From Methanolobus psychrotolerans (GTDB lineage: Archaea > Halobacteriota > Methanosarcinia > Methanosarcinales > Methanosarcinaceae), in NCBI RefSeq assembly GCF_002243045.1, contig NZ_MBKP01000027.1:1-64000 (forward strand): 64,000 bases of DNA, in the 5' to 3' direction. The translations under genes and the position numbers were made by a program. Below the pieces are notes generated by a model. That model had not been told where the DNA came from. It made no database searches and saw only the letters and a program-made list of their open reading frames with translations. This document shows positions 4,757-13,847 of this stretch, in pieces (position 1 is the stretch's first letter; the number at the start of each line of letters is the position of its first letter).

Positions 4757-5035
4757 CTAGATACCTAATTCCTTTGCAATCTCCTGAAACTCTTTACCCT
4801 TTGAAGTTGTTACATACAGATTCCCTTTACGTTCGATAAGTCCTTTTTCTTCCAGGATTTCAAGATACCTGTTTACCATTTCAAAATTCAAATTTGCACT
4901 GTAAACGATGTGTGTTTTTTTAGCCCCCTCTAATGCAGCTTTTAATATTTCCACGCTAATTGTCGTTCTGCTTCTTCTAATATAATCACATCCACTGGTT
5001 ACAGTCTGTTCTTTCATTTGCAGGTACCCACCCAT
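4757..5035 (-). CDS. Small winged-helix transcriptional regulator
   Basis: 92 residues from ATG 5035; an ATG at 5017 (MKEQTV..., 86 residues) is also plausible because GGGTGGG lies about 8 nt before it. The sequence has a helix-turn-helix followed by a wing: ILKAALEGAKKTHIVYSANLNFEMVNRYLEILEEKGLIERKGN then LYVTTSKGKEF. This is the pattern of the archaeal ArnR1/HTH_45-type winged helix family (DUF4364-like). It lies 37 bp downstream of the end of the cohesin-dockerin locus, in the same direction, so it may be the last gene of that operon or have its own promoter. Target unknown. Confidence 0.75.
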   Translation of the reverse strand: MGGYLQMKEQTVTSGCDYIRRSRTTISVEILKAALEGAKKTHIVYSANLNFEMVNRYLEILEEKGLIERKGNLYVTTSKGKEFQEIAKELGI

Positions 5036-5071: not shown

Positions 5072-5731
5072 TCATTTTCCAGCTTTATTCTTAGACCTGT
5101 ATCCATGAACAACAATAATTCCAACAAGGATAAGGCCCAGTATAGCAAGCATACCGTTAACACCAGTTACAGGTGAGTAGCCACCATCGTCTGCTTCATC
5201 ATTTACGACCTCATCAGCTACTTCGTCTATTGTGCTTGAAAGTGTTGATTCATCTGCAACATCAGGCACAGATTCAAATGTATCTTCTTCAGTGGGTTGT
5301 TCAGTAGTAGCAACGCTAATATAACCTCCGCCCCCCCCTGATGTACTTGAAGATACTGGTTTTTCTTCAGCTAGAACAGTTGCACTAATGTCCAGCGACA
5401 CTGCCTCTCCGCTTTGGTAATTTTTGAGATCTAAGGTCTGTGCTTCCACCCCGTCCACATAAACCTTGACCAGATCATAACCTGTGGGTATACCCAGCCT
5501 ATTGCCGCGTTTATCACCAATAACCCCTTCTGTGGTCACAGTTGTTTCACCTATGACATTTCCATCAACAACTATAGCAACCTCTGTTCCCACAACTGCG
5601 GGTTTTCCATCAACCAACAAATTACCTTCTAACACTATAGGAGGTTGGTTAGCTGCAGCAGGTACCACCAGGAATGCAAATAGAACTATTAATACCTGTA
5701 ATAAAACTCTTTTTCTTTTACCACATATCAT
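5072..5731 (-). CDS. Small secreted, membrane-anchored protein of the cohesin-dockerin locus
   Basis: 219 residues from ATG 5731, preceded by GGTGGGACGT; the longer frame to 5791 lacks such a site and would bury the signal peptide. Residues about 5-30 (RKRVLLQVLIVLFAFLVVPAAA) are a signal peptide. Residues about 30-115 form a beta-rich domain (NLLVDGKPAVVGTEVAIVVDG, then GYDLVKVYVDGV) resembling an Ig- or transthyretin-like module. A glycine run (GGGGGY) and an acidic low-complexity stretch follow. The C-terminus has one membrane segment (GMLAILGLILVGIIVVHGY) with a basic end (RSKNKAGK), a type I membrane anchor. It sits directly downstream of the three-cohesin protein, which suggests it belongs to the same surface complex; this is inference. 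Confidence 0.75.
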   Translation of the reverse strand: MICGKRKRVLLQVLIVLFAFLVVPAAANQPPIVLEGNLLVDGKPAVVGTEVAIVVDGNVIGETTVTTEGVIGDKRGNRLGIPTGYDLVKVYVDGVEAQTLDLKNYQSGEAVSLDISATVLAEEKPVSSSTSGGGGGYISVATTEQPTEEDTFESVPDVADESTLSSTIDEVADEVVNDEADDGGYSPVTGVNGMLAILGLILVGIIVVHGYRSKNKAGK

Positions 5732-5805
5732 ACGTCCCACCTTCGATAAATTAAAAATACAGTGAGAAAGTATCTCACTGCGATCCTTCATGTTTCATTG
5801 AGCCT

Positions 5806-8058
5806 TCAGGCCAATACGCACTCCTCGTCCACGAATACATAATATCCTTCGTACACGCTCATGCTAAATACATCGGTACCTACCTGGTTACCATTGATGA
5901 CACCTTCCACACCGTTGTAGCCCACATAGGCATACTCGTTTGCAGAGGTAACCCATGGTCCGGTTACCTTGATGTAGCTGTTGTCAATAGTTGAGAGACT
6001 AATCTCTGCAGATAGCTCGACCTTTGTATTGTGGCCAACAGCATTCCATCCCGGATAGAGTCTCAGCGATGGTGGTGTAGATGGCACCTTTGGTGTGAGG
6101 TAATCTTTGATTATAACTACCTCTTCGTCCAGATTGTTGTGCACCCAATATGCCTTCAATGGTTCGAAACTGGTTGGTACAACCATCATTCCGGTAGATG
6201 CATCGTCATAGAATACACTATCGATCTCTGTATCATCAAAGTCCTGAAGCACAGAGTCAATTGTTGCATCCTCAAGCGTCTCTGGGAATGAGATCAGATT
6301 CCAACCCGGCAGGAGTATTATTCCTTCGGGGTTGTACACTTCAACACACACTGTGTTGAATGCTGAATCTTTTCCATCGTCCAATGTAGCTTTTATCAGG
6401 TACTGTCCGTCAGGTACACCAGTTGTATCAAGCACGCCTGTCCAGCCATCTGAACCGTCATTATCTGTTGCAAACACAGTCCAGACATTGCCGACATCAT
6501 CGTCAATGCAGTTACTATTGGTATCTGCAAAGACAGCAAACGTTGCAGTATTGATATCATCCTGACCGGAATTATCTACAACTTCGACTATCTGTGTCTT
6601 TGAGACAACATCACCATCTGCATGGGAGACTATCTCCGGCTCTGGTACAACATTTGGTACTGTGGAAACTTCAACAGTTCCATCCGTGACCACAACTCCC
6701 GGAATTGCTGCATTAGCCTGGTCCTGGAGAACCACGTTCATCAGGTCAAGGTCGTAGACACCGTCTGCTGCACCTGCCTTCACTTCAAACTCAATGGTTA
6801 ACATTGCTCCGGCCTTTGGTGTGTAGACCCCACCTGTGGCTGCAATACCATACGATATGGTACCTGCACCATTGTCACCACTTCCAGGTGCCACTAGTGC
6901 TCCAGCTCCAAGCAAGTTCTCATCATTTATGTCGGTCACCATAAGTACTGCAGGATCATAGCCAAGCAGTAGACTCACAGCACGCAGGTTCTTGTCGGCT
7001 GAATCGACCATCACTTCAACCTGGAATGTCTCACCGATATCGACTGGTCCGCTTGCATTTGGAGATACCATTACCTCCGGCATTACAACAGGACCGTCAG
7101 CTACCTGTACAGTAGCATCAGTGACAACAACTCCGGCGATTGCCGTGTTGGTCTCGTCCATAAGTCCCACATTGTCCAGAACAAGGTTGTAGATGCCATT
7201 TGCAGCACCTGCCTTCACTTCGAATTCGATGGTCAGCATAGTACCGGCTTGCGGCGTGTAAGCTCCTGCGGTGGAGGCAATACCATATATAATGGTACCT
7301 GCACCGTCGTCACCACTGCCTGGCGCTTCCAGTGCTCCTGCTCCAAGCAGGTTCTCGTTGGTCACACTGTTCACCATGAGAACTGCAGCATCGTATTTCA
7401 GCTGCAGGTTCACAGCACGAAGGGCCTCATCAGCGGAATCCACATCAACCATTACCTGGAATGTGGCTCCCGGAGCAACCGGACCGCTCATTGCAGGAGT
7501 GATCTTCACTGTCGGATCAGCGGGCACTGGTGGTAATACATCATCACCAATTTTCACCGTTGCATCCATGATAGCTACTCCGGCAATAGCCGTGCTGGTC
7601 TCGTCTAAGAGTATCACATTCATCAGGTCAAGGTCATAGATACCATCAGCAGCTCCCGCTTTCACTTCAAAATTAATAGTGATCATGCTACCGGCTACTG
7701 GTGCATATGGACCGGATGTGGCTGCAATACCATAGGTAATGGTTCCTGCTCCATCATCCCCACTTCCCGGTGCTTCCAGTGCTCCTGCTCCAAGCAGGTT
7801 GTTGTTGGTTATACTATTGACCTGGAGAACTGCCGGATCATAGTCCAGCTGCAGGTTCATGGCACGTAGGTCAGACGCATCGGAATCCGCCAATATACTG
7901 ACCTGGAACGTATCACCTGCATCGTACTCATTGGTTTGTGGATCTACTGACACCGATGGTGCAGCCGCTGCAAGTCCTACGCCTACCATGAAACATGCAC
8001 AAAATATTAAAAGGATGGCAGCAGATCCCGCCATTCCTTTCCATGTTATTTTTGTCAT
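5806..8058 (-). CDS. Three-cohesin secreted scaffold-like protein
   Basis: 750 residues from ATG 8058, fixed by GAGGTGAAATC directly upstream; the longer frame to 8103 would overlap the previous gene. There is a signal peptide (AAILLIFCACFMVGVGLAAAAP). Three cohesin-type modules follow (about residues 33-175, 180-325 and 330-470), each with an opening VSPxxxxVxxGxTFQVxVxxDSAD, LRAxxLxLxYDPAVL and the signature GAGALEAPGSGDDGAG. A region with PEIVSHADGDVVSKTQ and a C-terminal pair of GWNLISF / GWNAVGH modules follows. No C-terminal membrane helix or sorting tail is visible. Cohesins bind dockerins, and the next gene upstream (22 bp away) ends in a dockerin, so the two proteins probably form a surface complex. 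Archaeal cohesin/dockerin proteins are known outside cellulosomes. Confidence 0.88.
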   Translation of the reverse strand: MTKITWKGMAGSAAILLIFCACFMVGVGLAAAAPSVSVDPQTNEYDAGDTFQVSILADSDASDLRAMNLQLDYDPAVLQVNSITNNNLLGAGALEAPGSGDDGAGTITYGIAATSGPYAPVAGSMITINFEVKAGAADGIYDLDLMNVILLDETSTAIAGVAIMDATVKIGDDVLPPVPADPTVKITPAMSGPVAPGATFQVMVDVDSADEALRAVNLQLKYDAAVLMVNSVTNENLLGAGALEAPGSGDDGAGTIIYGIASTAGAYTPQAGTMLTIEFEVKAGAANGIYNLVLDNVGLMDETNTAIAGVVVTDATVQVADGPVVMPEVMVSPNASGPVDIGETFQVEVMVDSADKNLRAVSLLLGYDPAVLMVTDINDENLLGAGALVAPGSGDNGAGTISYGIAATGGVYTPKAGAMLTIEFEVKAGAADGVYDLDLMNVVLQDQANAAIPGVVVTDGTVEVSTVPNVVPEPEIVSHADGDVVSKTQIVEVVDNSGQDDINTATFAVFADTNSNCIDDDVGNVWTVFATDNDGSDGWTGVLDTTGVPDGQYLIKATLDDGKDSAFNTVCVEVYNPEGIILLPGWNLISFPETLEDATIDSVLQDFDDTEIDSVFYDDASTGMMVVPTSFEPLKAYWVHNNLDEEVVIIKDYLTPKVPSTPPSLRLYPGWNAVGHNTKVELSAEISLSTIDNSYIKVTGPWVTSANEYAYVGYNGVEGVINGNQVGTDVFSMSVYEGYYVFVDEECVLA

Positions 8059-8080
8059 GATTTCACCTCTTACATCAGGC

Positions 8081-11000
8081 TTAAGACTGATATACTCCTG
8101 CAAACTCTACAAAGTCAAAGAAGTCTATTGCGCCATCATCATTGAAGTCGAAGATTGCATTGTAGTTGCTGTCACCCATTACTGAGTTGTAGCAAGCTGC
8201 AAATTCAACGAAGTCAAAGAAGTTGACAACTTCATCACCGTTGTAGTCACCCTTTGTCTCATCAACAACTGGTGGTTCATTGTTGCCAGCAGGTACTCCG
8301 CCATTCATGTACAGTCCTGTACCGTCCATTGGGTTGTGCGTGAACATGAGCCTCTGGTATCCGCATTCGGTTTCCAGATCAATGCCATCACACAGTACAG
8401 AGTTCGGTGCAAGGAACGAACTGGTCAGCAGATAGTCACCTGCTCCGCCTGCATTTGGTACATCCGGATAGACAAACTCCTTGTAGAAGTCTGGCATTGT
8501 CCTTATGTGCAGCCATACCCAGCTCTGAACTGGTGCTACAGAGTTGGATGATGCAGTGTTGTATGTACCTTCGCAAAGGATCTCCAGCAAGTTGGTGTGG
8601 AACCTTTCTTCAATGTCCTTACCAGTGAAGTATACCTCAAGGGCCGGGACAGTGAACATACGCTCTGCAATTGTATCCCATGAGCTGCTTATGTACCTGT
8701 CCTGATACCACAGCAGATCATTGAATCCTGGTGTTCCTACTCCGTCAGCAAGTATCTGACCGTAGTAGCAGGTCGTAGTCTCATCTGGCACGGAGTGTGG
8801 CACATCGATGTCATCGATCATGATGTACTCGCGGTTGAATGGTGGCAGTACAGGAACGATCTCATAGTTATCGACCATCTTCTTAACGACTGAGAGGTCG
8901 TTCAGTGCAACATCCTGGTGTTCTGGTATCGGGTTCCTGATGGTAATGTACTTGACATTGTCATCCTCGCTACCAAAGATAGCTGCAACGTCATACTCGG
9001 CACCGTCAACGAAGAATGTCTCACCTGTGTGGAGCAGACGTCCGACGCGTACAAGGGCCTTTCCATTGTTCGGGTTGACACCTTCGGTCCTCATGTACCA
9101 TGGTTCATAGAACTGTGGAGCAGCATCTTCGGTGACTGTGTGACGTCCGGAACTCAGGATCTCATTGCCTACACCAAGAACGTGCAGACCACCGATCTGT
9201 CCAGGGTTGGTGTTACCATTGTAGTAAACCTTTACTGCAACTGAATCCGGCTGACCGTTCTTGTAGTATATGTCCTCGATCTCTACAATGTGATCAAGGA
9301 ACTGCAGCCTGTCTCCTATGTTAATTGAGAAGAGCTCAGATGCAATGGATATGTCTTTCAGTCCGTCTCCACCTGGATACATCTCATCAGCGAAGTCTCC
9401 TACATCCATAAGATAGACAATATTGTCATTGCCATCACCGTTGATATCGAAACTGTCAAGACCTGTCTGGCCAAGGCGGTCTGCGACTGGGAAGTAGAAG
9501 TAGGTCCAGTATGCTCCGGTTGGGCTGATTGCCGTACCTTCTGTTGGCTGGTAGTGCTTGTCTATGAACATGTAGGTAAATTCATTGACAACATCTTCCC
9601 AGACGTACTTATTAGGCTCGTCGATCCATACACGGCCTGTCGGCTCAACGTACTCAGGTACGAACCACTGCCTGAAGAAGACCTTCTGCCAGGAGTCCCT
9701 GTTGTCCACAACTATACCTGCCTTTATCTTTGCAGGGTTGATGGTGACAAAGTCCTTAATTGGTGCTTCAGGGCTCATCGGGTCAAATGGTCCTTCCGGA
9801 TCAGTATATGGGAATGCTGCGCTGTAACCGTTCTCACCGTATATCCTCAGTCCGTTGGTGGTCTCGTCGATCTCATTGATATAGAGGTCAGTGAAACCTT
9901 CGACCTGGTCATATACAAACATCACTCTCTGTGGAAGAACTACGTCCCTTGGTGTCTCACAGACATCAGAGTTTGGTGCTCTCCATGAGCTGGTGAAGAG
10001 GAAGTCTCCGTACCTGTCATCTGCATCAGGCAGTTCAGGATATACGAATTCCTTGTAGAAATCAGGCATTGTCCTGATGTGCAGCCACTTCCATGCTTCG
10101 ATCTCGTCCTCGTCAAGGATCTCCAGCAGGTTGGTGTGGAGCCTTGGCTCTTCTGTCTTGTCAATGAAGTAGATAAGCAGTGGGTCTACATCATAGATCT
10201 TCCGCTCCTCAATGGTATCATAATAAGAATCAATATACATAGATTCATACCATTCGCCATCCGGCGCGTTCTTGTTAAGCAGGTCGCCATAGTAGCAGGT
10301 TGTGCCTTCCGCTCCCAGTGTGTGCATAATGTTGATATCATCGATCATGGTGTGTACCATGTTGAGTGGTGGCAACATAGGGATGTATTCGCCGTTATCA
10401 ACCATCTTCTTAACGACTGAAAGATCGTTCAGTGAAACGTCCTGGTGTTCTGGTACAGGGTTTCTGATGGTTATGTACTTGACATTGTACTTTTCAGAAC
10501 CGTATATCCTTGCAACATCATATTCAGCACCGTCTACGAAGAATGTCTCTCTTTCATAGATCTGACGTCCGACGCGTACAAGGACCTTGTCCATGCCTGC
10601 GGCAGCTCCCTCTACCTTAAGATACCATGGTTCGTAGAACTGTGGATAATCGTCTGTTACTGTGTGACGTCCGGAACTGAGAATACCGTCATCAACCTCG
10701 ATGACATGTATACCGCCTATCTGTTCAGGGTTAGTGTTACCGTTGTAGAAGATCTTCACAGCTACGGAATCAAGCTTGCCGCCGACGTAATAGATTCCCT
10801 CGACCTCTACTATGTGGTCAAGGAACTGTAGCCTGTCACCGATATTGACGGCGAACAGCTCGGAACTGATGCTTATATCCTTGTGACCGTCCCTGTTAAA
10901 ATCACCAACCCTCCTGAGGGTTACCATATCATCCTTGCCGTCATCATTGATGTCAAAACTGTCAAGACCTATCTGGGCATCATCACGGTCTGCGACAGGG

Positions 11001-11596
11001 AACCAGAAGTTAGTCCAGTAAGCCCCAGTTGGGCTCTTTGCTGTAGCTTCGCGTGGCTGGTAGTGTTTGTCAACAAACATGTAGGTATATTCTGTGACCA
11101 CATCTTCCCAGGTATATTCATTATGGTTGGGTATCCACTTGACATTTTTAACTGGTTTCTGGTAAATGTCAAGGGACATCTCTCTCAATTCGGATTCATC
11201 CACTTTCTCTTCCATTTCGATTGTTTCATTATCGGAAACGACTTCATAAGAGCGCCTGAATTCATCCAGCCATACCATACCTGTGGGTTCTGTGTACTCA
11301 GGTACGAACCACTGCCTTGCAAAGACCTTCTGTTTGGAGTCAATATTATTGACAACTATCCAGTCTTCCATTAAGGCCGGGTTGAATGTCACAAAATCTT
11401 TCTGCGGTGCTTCGGGGTTCATTGGGTCAAATGGAGCTACAGGATCCGTATAAGGGAATGCTGCGCTATAACCATTCTCACCATAGAGCCGCAATGTATT
11501 TACATCATCTTGAGCACTTGCTGCAGCTGCCATTGAGATAATTGCAATAAGAGCAATAGCAACCACTAAAAGCTCATGCTTCAACTTCACTTTCAT
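8081..11596 (-). CDS. Large duplicated secreted surface protein with C-terminal dockerin
   Basis: 1171 residues with an N-terminal signal peptide (LLVVAIALIAIISMAAAASA). The body is an internal duplication: a unit starting at about residue 35 (LRLYGENGYSAAFPYTDP) recurs at about 582 (LRIYGENGYSAAFPYTDP), each about 540 residues, with shared blocks such as KHYQP, SPTGAYWT, DSFDIN, GDRLQFLDHIVE, SSGRHTV, FFVDGAEYDVA and LHIRTMPDFYKEFVYP. Asp/Asn-rich loops (DINDDGKDD, DFNRDGHKD) look calcium-binding. Residues about 1115-1170 are a type I dockerin with two EF-like repeats (DYNGDEVVNFFDFVEF and DFNDDGAIDFFDFVEF). No membrane anchor follows it. Predicted partner: the cohesin protein immediately downstream. 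The size, duplication and repeat layout suit an S-layer-like or abundant envelope protein, but I do not recognise a named family for the body. Confidence 0.88.
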   Translation of the reverse strand: MKVKLKHELLVVAIALIAIISMAAAASAQDDVNTLRLYGENGYSAAFPYTDPVAPFDPMNPEAPQKDFVTFNPALMEDWIVVNNIDSKQKVFARQWFVPEYTEPTGMVWLDEFRRSYEVVSDNETIEMEEKVDESELREMSLDIYQKPVKNVKWIPNHNEYTWEDVVTEYTYMFVDKHYQPREATAKSPTGAYWTNFWFPVADRDDAQIGLDSFDINDDGKDDMVTLRRVGDFNRDGHKDISISSELFAVNIGDRLQFLDHIVEVEGIYYVGGKLDSVAVKIFYNGNTNPEQIGGIHVIEVDDGILSSGRHTVTDDYPQFYEPWYLKVEGAAAGMDKVLVRVGRQIYERETFFVDGAEYDVARIYGSEKYNVKYITIRNPVPEHQDVSLNDLSVVKKMVDNGEYIPMLPPLNMVHTMIDDINIMHTLGAEGTTCYYGDLLNKNAPDGEWYESMYIDSYYDTIEERKIYDVDPLLIYFIDKTEEPRLHTNLLEILDEDEIEAWKWLHIRTMPDFYKEFVYPELPDADDRYGDFLFTSSWRAPNSDVCETPRDVVLPQRVMFVYDQVEGFTDLYINEIDETTNGLRIYGENGYSAAFPYTDPEGPFDPMSPEAPIKDFVTINPAKIKAGIVVDNRDSWQKVFFRQWFVPEYVEPTGRVWIDEPNKYVWEDVVNEFTYMFIDKHYQPTEGTAISPTGAYWTYFYFPVADRLGQTGLDSFDINGDGNDNIVYLMDVGDFADEMYPGGDGLKDISIASELFSINIGDRLQFLDHIVEIEDIYYKNGQPDSVAVKVYYNGNTNPGQIGGLHVLGVGNEILSSGRHTVTEDAAPQFYEPWYMRTEGVNPNNGKALVRVGRLLHTGETFFVDGAEYDVAAIFGSEDDNVKYITIRNPIPEHQDVALNDLSVVKKMVDNYEIVPVLPPFNREYIMIDDIDVPHSVPDETTTCYYGQILADGVGTPGFNDLLWYQDRYISSSWDTIAERMFTVPALEVYFTGKDIEERFHTNLLEILCEGTYNTASSNSVAPVQSWVWLHIRTMPDFYKEFVYPDVPNAGGAGDYLLTSSFLAPNSVLCDGIDLETECGYQRLMFTHNPMDGTGLYMNGGVPAGNNEPPVVDETKGDYNGDEVVNFFDFVEFAACYNSVMGDSNYNAIFDFNDDGAIDFFDFVEFAGVYQS

Positions 11597-11739
11597 ATTA
11601 TATCCTCCTTTCTTAAGCCATACCGACTCTTCGATACCATCAAACGTGACTTATGACTCCGTCTCCAATCGTTTAATGATACCCGAGTGAAGTTGCCTTG
11701 GATAACCCCCTGACAACCCCAAATAATGATACGAAGTCA

Positions 11740-11751
11740 GATATTATAAAC
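11740..11751 (-). promoter_or_regulatory. TATA box of the dockerin/cohesin operon
   Basis: On the minus strand this reads GGTTTATAATAT, a good archaeal TATA box. Transcription would start near 11720, giving a leader of about 120 nt before the dockerin gene. The rest of 11597-11893 holds no gene; the leader has C- and G-rich stretches around 11700-11720. Confidence 0.5.
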
Positions 11752-11893
11752 CGATAAGAAATACAGGTTCAGAAAACAGTTCGCAAGATAATATTCGTAA
11801 TATAGTTCCGTAACAAAGATACTATAGATGACATAACTTACATGGGAAATTTACATGATCACATGCACCAAAAATAACAAAAAAGCAAAAAGA

Positions 11894-12307
11894 TCATATT
11901 TTATCAGATGTTTTTTGTAAGGGGACAATGAAGCTATCGTAGGTAAAAGTAATCCATAAGAGGAAGGGAAAAGCTATTCTTCCAATGGCATAGATGTAAA
12001 GCAACTGATCCTGATAAGCGAAAAAAAAGAGTTGCAAATACACTATTAATAAATTAAAAGTTATTGTAAGCAAAAAGCCTATGAGTAAAATCTTTATGGT
12101 CCTCTTCCTTTGGAGAGCTGTGGCAAGCACGAGTGCTACAAAAGGCAGGAAGTTCAAGGGCAGATAGAACAAAAAGAAATTCTGAAGATCTACAATTACA
12201 ACAGAAGCGGCAAAATATCTTCCACCGATGGGGAGCCACAAAATAAATAAAATGGTAAGATAAAGAAAAAATCTTTTCAGAAATGGTATCATTCTTATCA
12301 TACTCAT
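11894..12307 (-). CDS. Small polytopic membrane protein next to the PGF-CTERM cohesin gene
   Basis: 137 residues with about four hydrophobic segments (FFLYLTILFILWLPI, FFLFYLPLNFLPFVALVLA, ILLIGFLLTITFNLLIVYL and IGRIAFPFLLWITF) and a positively charged loop (LQRKRTIK). It starts 28 bp after the end of the cohesin gene with GGAAGAG upstream, so it is probably co-transcribed with it. The topology and the LLFxLWLP start remind me of small exosortase/archaeosortase-associated membrane proteins, but this is a weak impression and no catalytic motif is present. Function unknown. Confidence 0.65.
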   Translation of the reverse strand: MSMIRMIPFLKRFFLYLTILFILWLPIGGRYFAASVVIVDLQNFFLFYLPLNFLPFVALVLATALQRKRTIKILLIGFLLTITFNLLIVYLQLFFFAYQDQLLYIYAIGRIAFPFLLWITFTYDSFIVPLQKTSDKI

Positions 12308-12335
12308 AAACTCTTCCTTCTTAGTATATCTGCCT

Positions 12336-13847
12336 TTAAGGTTTACGTTTCACAAACACATTTGTCATACACACTGAGAGGAAACTGATAAGAAAACCAA
12401 AGCCTGGTACCTCTTTTGCTTCTGCCTCCGTTTCCGGCATCGTGGCTTCTTCGACAGGTATTTCCTGGGTAGATGCCAATACATTCTCCGTTTCATCAGG
12501 GTTGCTTAGTTTGAATACGACAGGAACATCACTTACTCCTATATTCATGGCTGCAATGTTCATTATTTCATAGATATCAACTATCAATGACTTTCTGCTT
12601 ACATCTGCTTCTTCATTGATCCTTACTTCAAAGTAACCATTTGGCGATAATCCCGTACTCCGGAGTACACCGCTTTTTAAATAGCTGTCGATCTCATCAC
12701 TTACATTAAGAGAGATGGCATATGAATCCTGGAAATACCATTGCCAGCATTCTTGTTCGGTCCTTATCTGAGGTACCGTTCCGGCTGTAGCTAAAATCAT
12801 CGGATCATAGAGAGAACTTTTATTATCCATTAAGTCTTCAAGTTTGGCTTCGTTTATCGTCTGTATTCTTTGAAGTAACTGTTGGAGAACATCACTTACC
12901 TGAGAAAGTGTGCCTTCACCAAATTCCACAGGTACATTCTCTATACCCATTTCTTGTGCTTCATTGTCAATTATTGTATATACTTCATCCATCTGGGATC
13001 TATCGGGCATGAGAGGTTCGTAAAATACGACTACCAGATAGCCACCAGAGTTGGAGCCTATAGATATTATCCTGCCATATGAGTAAAGATATTGACCTTC
13101 CAGCTCTTCCACAAGCCGGCTCTCCAGTATAAGACTGTTCCGGGACCAGTTAGCATCTTTCTGTGCTGCGCCATACCTGCTCATCACTTCATAGTCAGGC
13201 GGATGGGAACCAAAGACATATGTGTATTCCAGCTGTTGCCCAGAGTTCAATGACGAAAATGAGCTGCTGGTTGAGCTGGTTGATGTGCTTTTGACCACAC
13301 TTCCAAAATCAATACTTTCCGGTTGTGTTGAAAGATCATCTGCTCCTGCCCCAACTACAACTGTGCTTCCAGTTGCTTTACCGTTAAGGTATTGACTGTT
13401 TTTATCAAGAAGCCATACTTCCTCGAAACTGAGACTATATGTACCTTCTTCGGCAATGTCTTTGATATGGAAATTGATCGTTAGCATTGTATTGGCTTTT
13501 GGTGTATAGCTTTTGTCCGTGGATGCAATACTATAAGTTATGCTACCTGCACCATTATCACCACTATCTGGCCCTATCAGGAAATTACTACCAAAAAGAT
13601 TTCCATCCTTTATACTAGCAACTTCAAATGAATTAGAATCATAAACTAACTTTATTTGTACTGCTCTTAACGGATCAATTCCAGAATTAACATCAATATT
13701 TACATTAAAAGCATCACCTGGAGACATACCAGTCTGCGATTCCGGAGATATGACAACATATGAAATTGCAGACACATTCCCGATACCTGCCATTAGAATT
13801 AATAATGCCAGGACTGAATATTTAACATATTTATCAATACACCACAT
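12336..13847 (-). CDS. Single-cohesin surface protein with PGF-CTERM-like sorting tail
   Basis: 503 residues with a signal peptide (YSVLALLILMAGIGNVSA). Residues about 30-165 are one cohesin module (VVISPESQTGMSPGDAFNVNIDV, LRAVQIKLVYDSNSFEV, GPDSGDNGAGSITYSIAS). A Ser/Thr-rich linker (STSTSSTSSSFSSLNSG) leads to a 270-residue region of unknown fold containing two related segments (SYGRIISIGSNSGGYLVVVF and STGLSPNGYFEVRI). The end carries an acidic stretch and VPGFGFLISFLSVCMTNVF plus KRKP: a PGF motif, a hydrophobic segment and a basic end, the layout of PGF-CTERM proteins processed by archaeosortase ArtA. It may therefore be the lipid-anchored receptor for dockerin proteins such as 8081-11596; that is inference. 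A GGGGGTTAC motif precedes the ATG. Confidence 0.85.
   Translation of the reverse strand: MWCIDKYVKYSVLALLILMAGIGNVSAISYVVISPESQTGMSPGDAFNVNIDVNSGIDPLRAVQIKLVYDSNSFEVASIKDGNLFGSNFLIGPDSGDNGAGSITYSIASTDKSYTPKANTMLTINFHIKDIAEEGTYSLSFEEVWLLDKNSQYLNGKATGSTVVVGAGADDLSTQPESIDFGSVVKSTSTSSTSSSFSSLNSGQQLEYTYVFGSHPPDYEVMSRYGAAQKDANWSRNSLILESRLVEELEGQYLYSYGRIISIGSNSGGYLVVVFYEPLMPDRSQMDEVYTIIDNEAQEMGIENVPVEFGEGTLSQVSDVLQQLLQRIQTINEAKLEDLMDNKSSLYDPMILATAGTVPQIRTEQECWQWYFQDSYAISLNVSDEIDSYLKSGVLRSTGLSPNGYFEVRINEEADVSRKSLIVDIYEIMNIAAMNIGVSDVPVVFKLSNPDETENVLASTQEIPVEEATMPETEAEAKEVPGFGFLISFLSVCMTNVFVKRKP

What the first reader, a model, noticed from the sequence alone, without database searches (positions are those of the whole stretch)
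5072..13847. Enzyme-free cohesin-dockerin surface system in a methanogen
Within 9 kb there are four cohesin modules in two proteins, a type I dockerin at the end of a 1171-residue duplicated envelope protein, a small single-pass partner, and a PGF-CTERM-like anchor on the one-cohesin protein. No glycoside hydrolase or other catalytic domain is visible. This looks like a modular surface assembly: the PGF-CTERM cohesin as cell-bound receptor, the three-cohesin protein as scaffold, the duplicated protein as cargo or S-layer-like component. Cohesin and dockerin outside cellulosomes are known in archaea, but the function of such a locus is not settled.
Basis: partly seen in the sequence, partly recalled or inferred. 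Interest (0 to 1): 0.8.

Follow-up and report, generated by a model that had tools for sequence, protein, structure and literature searches.

The report
Clip-together surface display operon in methanogens
A methane-producing archaeon (Methanolobus) and many relatives carry a small gene set that appears to hang a large non-enzymatic coat-like protein on the cell surface with the dockerin-cohesin 'clip' that bacteria use to build cellulose-digesting machines, plus a second, apparently undescribed clip that fastens it to the membrane.

Summary
In detail: three cohesins in 5806-8103, one in 12336-13847, and a C-terminal type I dockerin on the duplicated 1171-aa protein, with no catalytic domain. 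The organism is a Methanolobus. The set is a widely conserved operon whose core is P2 (dockerin protein), P1 (1-3 cohesins plus a C-terminal 'GWN' domain) and P0 (single-pass protein). All 25 dockerin-ended P2 genes found are followed by a cohesin gene. In ten genomes of another family, P2 lacks the dockerin and carries a GWN domain in the same chain, with no cohesin next door. Dockerin distances track P1 cohesin distances (partial r 0.82), not GWN or P0; GWN tracks P0 (partial r 0.74). In this genome GWN genes occur at four loci and P0 genes at the same four, always adjacent. Best model: P2 docks on P1, and P0 holds P1 at the membrane through GWN; the PGF-type cohesin (P4) is a lineage-specific second receptor. 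P2's fold weakly resembles the Methanosarcina S-layer domain; its function is inferred. No binding was tested.

The parts
12336..13847 (-). P4: 503 aa, signal segment, one cohesin (Pfam match 13398-13748), uncharacterised middle region, C-terminal PGF + hydrophobic + basic end (12339-12416). Second, membrane-anchored cohesin receptor.
   Evidence: Pfam; orthologues in L009-L012, L014, L052-L055; invariant PGF end in 10 orthologues; absent upstream of P2 in L056-L059
11894..12307 (-). P3: 137 aa, four predicted TM helices; distant relative lies beside archaeosortase B in genome G006
   Evidence: hydropathy; conserved in operon; L064:15092-15574 (P3 profile E about 1e-11) overlaps an archaeosortase B gene
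8081..11596 (-). P2: 1171 aa secreted protein, two all-beta units (9869-11500 and 8288-9859, 66% identical) and C-terminal dockerin
   Evidence: AlphaFold2 unit model pLDDT 83.9, pTM 0.86
8090..8257 (-). Type I dockerin of P2, two canonical Ca loops and near-identical recognition helices (DFVEFA / DFVEFA)
5806..8103 (-). P1: scaffold with three cohesins (7549-7959, 7102-7515, 6667-7080), an Ig-like linker and a C-terminal GWN domain; no TM or anchor signal of its own; probable start 8058
5809..6324 (-). GWN domain (two GWN-type repeats) at the C terminus of P1; no Pfam, NCBIfam or PDB sequence match
5072..5791 (-). P0: 239 aa; signal segment, small beta-type domain, Gly/Ser/Thr/acidic stalk, C-terminal TM (PGF-CTERM-like in relatives); proposed membrane receptor for GWN
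4757..5035 (-). wHTH (HTH_45) gene following P0 in Methanolobus; possible regulator, not part of the core

Best explanation
The locus encodes a non-enzymatic, probably calcium-dependent surface-display assembly. P2, a secreted coat-like protein, ends in a type I dockerin that binds the cohesins of P1 (three here, one to three elsewhere), so one P1 can carry up to three P2. P1 has no membrane anchor; its C-terminal GWN domain is held by P0, a stalked single-pass protein encoded next to it. In some Methanolobus an extra cohesin (P4, PGF-type anchor) gives a second docking site. Shown by sequence: the modules, their order and their conservation. Inferred: the two binding steps, the stoichiometry and the envelope-coat role of P2.
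For: (1) All 25 dockerin-ended P2 genes found are followed, same strand, by a cohesin gene; P0 follows in 21 of 22 where the DNA continues. (2) In ten genomes of family f10, P2 has no dockerin and ends in a GWN domain in the same chain (profile-profile probability 97.9%, E 6e-13; controls at most 0.3%), and the next gene has no cohesin. (3) Over 19-22 loci, dockerin-cohesin distances correlate 0.89-0.90 (partial 0.82 given the P2 core, p 2e-4); GWN-P0 0.92 (partial 0.74); controls dockerin-GWN 0.08, dockerin-P0 0.12, cohesin-GWN 0.15. P2 sequence next to the dockerin does not share the signal (0.11). (4) In this genome GWN occurs at four loci and P0 at the same four, adjacent; in ten other genomes 12 of 20 GWN genes have P0 next. 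(5) Dockerin and cohesin modules of Archaeoglobus fulgidus ORF2375 and ORF2376 bind strongly (PMC9705933).
Against: No binding data and no complex prediction. Dockerin/cohesin and GWN/P0 coding regions are physically adjacent, so local recombination could add to the correlation (partly controlled). The Mantel-type test is not tree-aware, and cohesin-P0 shows a weaker residual correlation (0.31). GWN is a general surface module (four per genome here), so its fusion to P2 is less specific than a unique domain would be. Eight of 20 GWN genes elsewhere lack a neighbouring P0. The S-layer resemblance of P2 is structural only (Foldseek E 2.4e-3, TM 0.27), and profile comparison with DUF1608 gives 0.1%.
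Confidence: 0.62

Rival explanations
1. One reading: P4 (PGF-CTERM cohesin) is the primary cell-bound receptor, P1 a secreted bridging scaffold, and P0 an unrelated small membrane protein.
For: P4 has a cohesin and an invariant PGF end; the genome has three archaeosortase-family genes; the dockerin also co-varies with the P4 cohesin (partial 0.69, 10 loci).
Against: P4 is absent from the operon in L056-L059 and in the other lineages, where P1 and P0 persist. Co-variation with P1 cohesins is stronger on the same loci (0.89). P1 carries no dockerin with which to attach to P4.
Confidence: 0.17
2. The assembly is an adhesin or matrix for cell-cell or cell-surface contact, with P1 and P2 largely outside the cell, as proposed in general terms for ANME dockerin/cohesin proteins.
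For: P2 of L013 contains a VWA domain; FG-GAP-like matches in five P2 members; Ig-like linkers; literature suggestion in PMC5244752 and PMC9012536.
Against: No recognised adhesin or carbohydrate-binding domain in the window's P2. Conserved coupling to P0 argues for tethering to the producing cell, though a tethered adhesin is compatible with the best explanation.
Confidence: 0.15
3. The cohesins and dockerin of this operon do not bind each other; they are retained modules with other partners, such as dockerins and cohesins elsewhere in the genome.
For: At least two other dockerin proteins exist (C15 324-aa CAP protein with a 61% identical dockerin; C49 1523-aa protein).
Against: Strict adjacency, specific co-variation, concerted changes in both dockerin repeats, and replacement of the pair by a fused form.
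Confidence: 0.06

Closest known systems
Archaeoglobus fulgidus ORF2375 (dockerin) / ORF2376 (cohesin)
   Same: Archaeal, non-cellulosomal, consecutively numbered ORFs carry dockerin and cohesin, strong specific binding reported (PMC9705933, citing Voronov-Goldman 2011 and Haimovitz 2008)
   Different: I did not establish whether those proteins contain P2 units, GWN or P0 partners
Dockerin/cohesin proteins of ANME archaea (Chadwick et al. 2022, PMC9012536)
   Same: Related archaea, multi-cohesin scaffoldin-like proteins, some dockerins on S-layer-domain proteins, function open
   Different: No operon, GWN domain or P0 partner appears in the passages I read; there the multi-cohesin proteins also bear a dockerin, which P1 lacks
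Clostridial cellulosome
   Same: Multi-cohesin scaffoldin, C-terminal type I dockerin on the displayed protein, separate anchoring cohesin (P4)
   Different: No glycoside hydrolase, carbohydrate-binding module, SLH domain or sortase motif; displayed protein is apparently non-enzymatic
Methanosarcina acetivorans S-layer protein MA0829, DUF1608 (PDB 3u2g)
   Same: Tandem all-beta envelope units; best structural match of the P2 unit (prob 0.97, E 2.4e-3)
   Different: No sequence similarity (hhalign 0.1%; no PF07752 hit); TM-score only 0.27; this genome encodes true DUF1608 proteins elsewhere (C35, C81)

Membership tests
Cohesin (PF00963) | Profile score above the curated cut-off for each module | tested here: met
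   Four modules at 48.5-59.3 bits versus 24.1
Dockerin type I (PF00404) | Profile score above the curated cut-off | tested here: inconclusive
   20.9 bits versus 22.9 in hmmscan; 27.4 bits in the genome search
Dockerin type I (PF00404) | Two F-hand Ca loops with duplicated recognition helices | tested here: met
   DYNGDEVVNFFD and DFNDDGAIDFFD, helices DFVEFA/DFVEFA
Dockerin-cohesin pair | Ca2+-dependent binding | not testable with these tools
   Only indirect evidence: adjacency, co-variation, fused form
Cellulosome | Dockerin-bearing glycoside hydrolases | tested here: not met
   None in the operon; the other dockerin proteins found carry CAP/YkwD or DNRLRE/Ig domains. The dockerin search may miss divergent ones
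Cellulosome | Multi-cohesin scaffoldin | tested here: met
   P1 with three cohesins
Cellulosome | Carbohydrate-binding module or SLH anchor on the scaffoldin | tested here: not met
   No such Pfam hit in P1 or P4
DUF1608 S-layer protein (PF07752) | Profile or sequence similarity | tested here: not met
   PF07752 not among the families listed for 20 members; hhalign 0.1-0.3%
DUF1608 S-layer protein (PF07752) | DUF1608 fold | tested here: inconclusive
   3u2g ranked first, prob 0.97, E 2.4e-3, TM 0.27
PGF-CTERM / archaeosortase substrate (P4) | PGF motif, hydrophobic helix, basic end; archaeosortase in genome | tested here: inconclusive
   Motif invariant in 10 orthologues and three archaeosortase-family genes, but TIGR04126 not hit for P4

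The most novel reading that the evidence does not exclude
GWN-P0 is an undescribed archaeal receptor-ligand pair that tethers many secreted proteins to the membrane, and the dockerin-cohesin joint is one of several interchangeable ways (direct fusion, dockerin-cohesin, perhaps an EF-hand tail with an 'RDLP' domain) of hanging the same P2 coat protein on it.
Probability: 0.45. Interest if true: 0.75.

Novelty: new variant of a known kind. Interest (0 to 1): 0.6.

Why it matters
Dockerins and cohesins outside cellulosomes have been known in archaea since 1999 without an assigned function. A conserved operon with a defined displayed protein, scaffold and anchor, plus lineages where the same two parts are one chain, makes the question directly testable in cultured methanogens. 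It also points to a candidate second clip (GWN-P0) for archaeal surface display, of interest for envelope biology and for orthogonal protein tethering.

Tried and rejected
Full-length AlphaFold2 of P2 (mean pLDDT 62) gave no meaningful PDB match; the single unit was modelled instead. Kinship of P2 with DUF1608 by sequence: rejected. GWN against PDB sequences: no match. Cellulosome: rejected for lack of enzymes, CBM and SLH. L098/L097 tails as ordinary dockerins: not supported (hhalign 0.9% and 48%), so those two loci were not counted as dockerin pairs. L064 (G006) was left out of the co-variation test because its cohesins are divergent (95.5%, E 1.6e-8) and its dockerin match is weak (30.6%, E 5e-4). 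Chance adjacency of GWN and P0: rejected for this genome (four of four). Simple linkage as the cause of dockerin-cohesin co-variation: tested with adjacent P2 sequence and not sufficient. Peer et al. 2009 was not in the library.

Full report
What is there. The window is contig C49 of a 3.16-Mb genome. Relatives of the 1171-aa protein lie in Methanolobus and other Methanosarcinaceae, so the host is a methylotrophic methanogen of that group. On the minus strand, in transcription order, are P4 (12336-13847), P3 (11894-12307), P2 (8081-11596), P1 (5806-8103) and P0 (5072-5791). Pfam confirms one cohesin in P4, three in P1 and a borderline dockerin at the end of P2. The dockerin passes the cut-off in the genome search and has both calcium loops. 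P2 consists of two halves 66% identical. P1 has a signal segment but no other TM helix, as in nearly all orthologues; P0 has a signal segment and a C-terminal TM helix; P3 has four TM helices. No catalytic domain was found in the five genes.

Other parts in the genome. Six Pfam cohesin hits are found, plus a seventh cohesin in a 1523-aa protein of the same contig, which also ends in a dockerin. The remaining cohesin proteins are a 257-aa TM protein (C73) and a 428-aa PGF-pre-PGF protein (C62). A third dockerin is on a 324-aa CAP/YkwD-domain protein (C15). The P2 and CAP dockerins are 61% identical and form one class; the 1523-aa dockerin is 25-34% identical and forms another. P1 cohesins are 62-69% identical to each other, P4 is 41-43%, the rest 25-32%. 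I infer that P2 and the CAP protein compete for P1/P4 cohesins, while the 1523-aa dockerin has other partners.

Conservation. The order P4-P3-P2-P1-P0 recurs between the same flanking genes in Methanolobus and a Methanosarcinaceae MAG. P2 homologues occur in other families of the order and of the phylum, and a P2-P1-P0 version lies on a contig assigned to a Thermoplasmata MAG (L013), with a VWA domain inserted in P2. L013 P2 is 54% identical to the window's, more than some order-mates (26-31%), so transfer or mis-binning is likely there. P4 and P3 are missing upstream of P2 in L056-L059. P2 units can be single: L061 has one unit, one cohesin and two P0 genes. Within the genus, the 14 genomes with P2 have 6-17 Pfam cohesins (median 9.5), the 13 without have 0-6 (median 2).

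Dockerin and cohesin of the operon as a pair. All 25 dockerin-ended P2 genes are followed on the same strand by a cohesin gene, 24 with a visible GWN domain (in the other the contig ends), and 21 of 22 with continuing DNA by P0. A few loci are the same genome seen twice; 22 distinct sequences entered the later test. In genome G006 (L064) both sides have diverged: its P1 repeats match cohesins at 95.5% probability, while the P2 tail is a weak dockerin match. In G111 (L114) the P2 slot holds an unrelated 733-aa dockerin protein, still followed by two cohesins + GWN and two P0.

Fused form. Ten genomes of family f10 encode P2 homologues without a dockerin whose C terminus is a GWN domain, and no cohesin follows (L099, L101-L107, L109, L110). 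The tail of eight of them matches the P1 GWN profile with 97.9% probability (E 6e-13) and the other two with 97.0% (9e-11); cohesin, P0 and dockerin profiles give 0.1-0.3%. So the two chains that in Methanolobus could be joined by dockerin-cohesin are one chain there. Caution: GWN is also found on other surface proteins.

Co-variation. For 19-22 loci, pairwise distances of the dockerin (in P2) and cohesins (in P1) correlate at 0.89-0.90, partial 0.82 after removing the P2 core; it holds without the most divergent loci (0.84) and within the Methanolobus-like set (0.84). Dockerin-GWN, dockerin-P0 and cohesin-GWN are 0.08-0.15; cohesin-P0 is 0.31. GWN-P0 is 0.92, partial 0.74. Because the modules that pair are also neighbours in the DNA, I tested the P2 segment adjacent to the dockerin: it does not follow the cohesins (0.11; last 60 residues 0.24), and dockerin-cohesin stays at 0.83 with that segment removed. 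The recognition helices of the two dockerin repeats change together between lineages (DFVEFA/DFVEFA, DLSAFAL/DLSAFAL, DASKLIL/DASKLIL), as expected of the symmetric type I dockerin (established knowledge).

P0 and GWN. A profile of GWN finds four proteins in this genome: P1, a 1301-aa NHL/CbiX/FmdE-like protein, a 649-aa CbiX protein and a 2016-aa protein. A profile of P0 finds genes at exactly those four loci, each right after the GWN gene. In ten other genomes 12 of 20 GWN genes have P0 next. Two without P0 (L140, L141) carry a DUF1608 S-layer domain with their cohesins and GWN, so they may be held by the S-layer instead (inference). P0 proteins end in a TM helix, in several relatives of PGF type.

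P2 fold. One P2 unit is predicted as an all-beta protein with good confidence. Its best PDB match is the C-terminal DUF1608 domain of the Methanosarcina acetivorans S-layer protein (prob 0.97, E 2.4e-3, but TM 0.27), an outcome noted as expected before the search. Sequence profiles do not support kinship. I treat 'S-layer-like coat component' as a hint.

Compared with what is known. Binding of an archaeal pair encoded by ORFs 2375 and 2376 of Archaeoglobus fulgidus is established (PMC9705933). Chadwick et al. (PMC9012536) describe many ANME dockerin/cohesin proteins, including multi-cohesin ones, note that earlier archaeal examples lacked scaffoldins, and leave function open. I found no description of the P2-P1-P0 operon or of GWN-P0 in the papers I could search; subscription literature was not covered. 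Verdict: new variant of a known kind.

Noticed in passing
L123:2102-6007 and 1287-2015 (G000 C80); L124:3210-5960 (G000 C90): Secreted GWN proteins with CbiX chelatase-like (and FmdE-like, NHL) domains, each followed by a P0 gene: apparently surface-displayed cobaltochelatase-like proteins.
   Followed up: partly
L125:4163-12775 (G000 C47): A 2016-aa GWN protein followed by three P0-family genes in a row.
   Followed up: partly
L140, L141 (G116:C1:788947-792123; G132:C1:159335-163420): Proteins with a DUF1608 S-layer domain, three cohesins and a GWN domain, without a P0 neighbour: a direct link of cohesins to the S-layer.
   Followed up: partly
L114:7558-9759: An unrelated 733-aa repeat protein with a dockerin takes the place of P2 in front of a two-cohesin GWN protein and two P0 genes.
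   Followed up: no
L098:8461-13026; L097:3-5800: P2 homologues ending in EF-hand-like tails that are not clear dockerins, followed by proteins with an 'RDLP' beta domain instead of cohesins; possibly another docking pair.
   Followed up: partly
L013:3875-10093: P2-P1-P0 on a contig labelled Thermoplasmata; P2 has a VWA domain inserted and is unusually close to the Methanolobus version (transfer or mis-binning).
   Followed up: no
L064:14581-15574: Archaeosortase B gene overlapping a distant relative of the 4-TM protein P3, suggesting P3 may be a sorting-enzyme accessory.
   Followed up: partly
L015:11346-15917 (C49:75346-79917): 1523-aa DNRLRE/Ig protein with both a cohesin and a dockerin of another specificity class, on the same contig.
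   Followed up: partly
window 4757-5035: wHTH gene directly after P0 in Methanolobus; a paralogue sits beside other surface-protein genes (L128:5358-5666).
   Followed up: no
L061:1-826: A P0-family protein ends in an EF-hand-like tail (DANGDGKVDMDELFDAVDAYI) rather than a TM helix.
   Followed up: no
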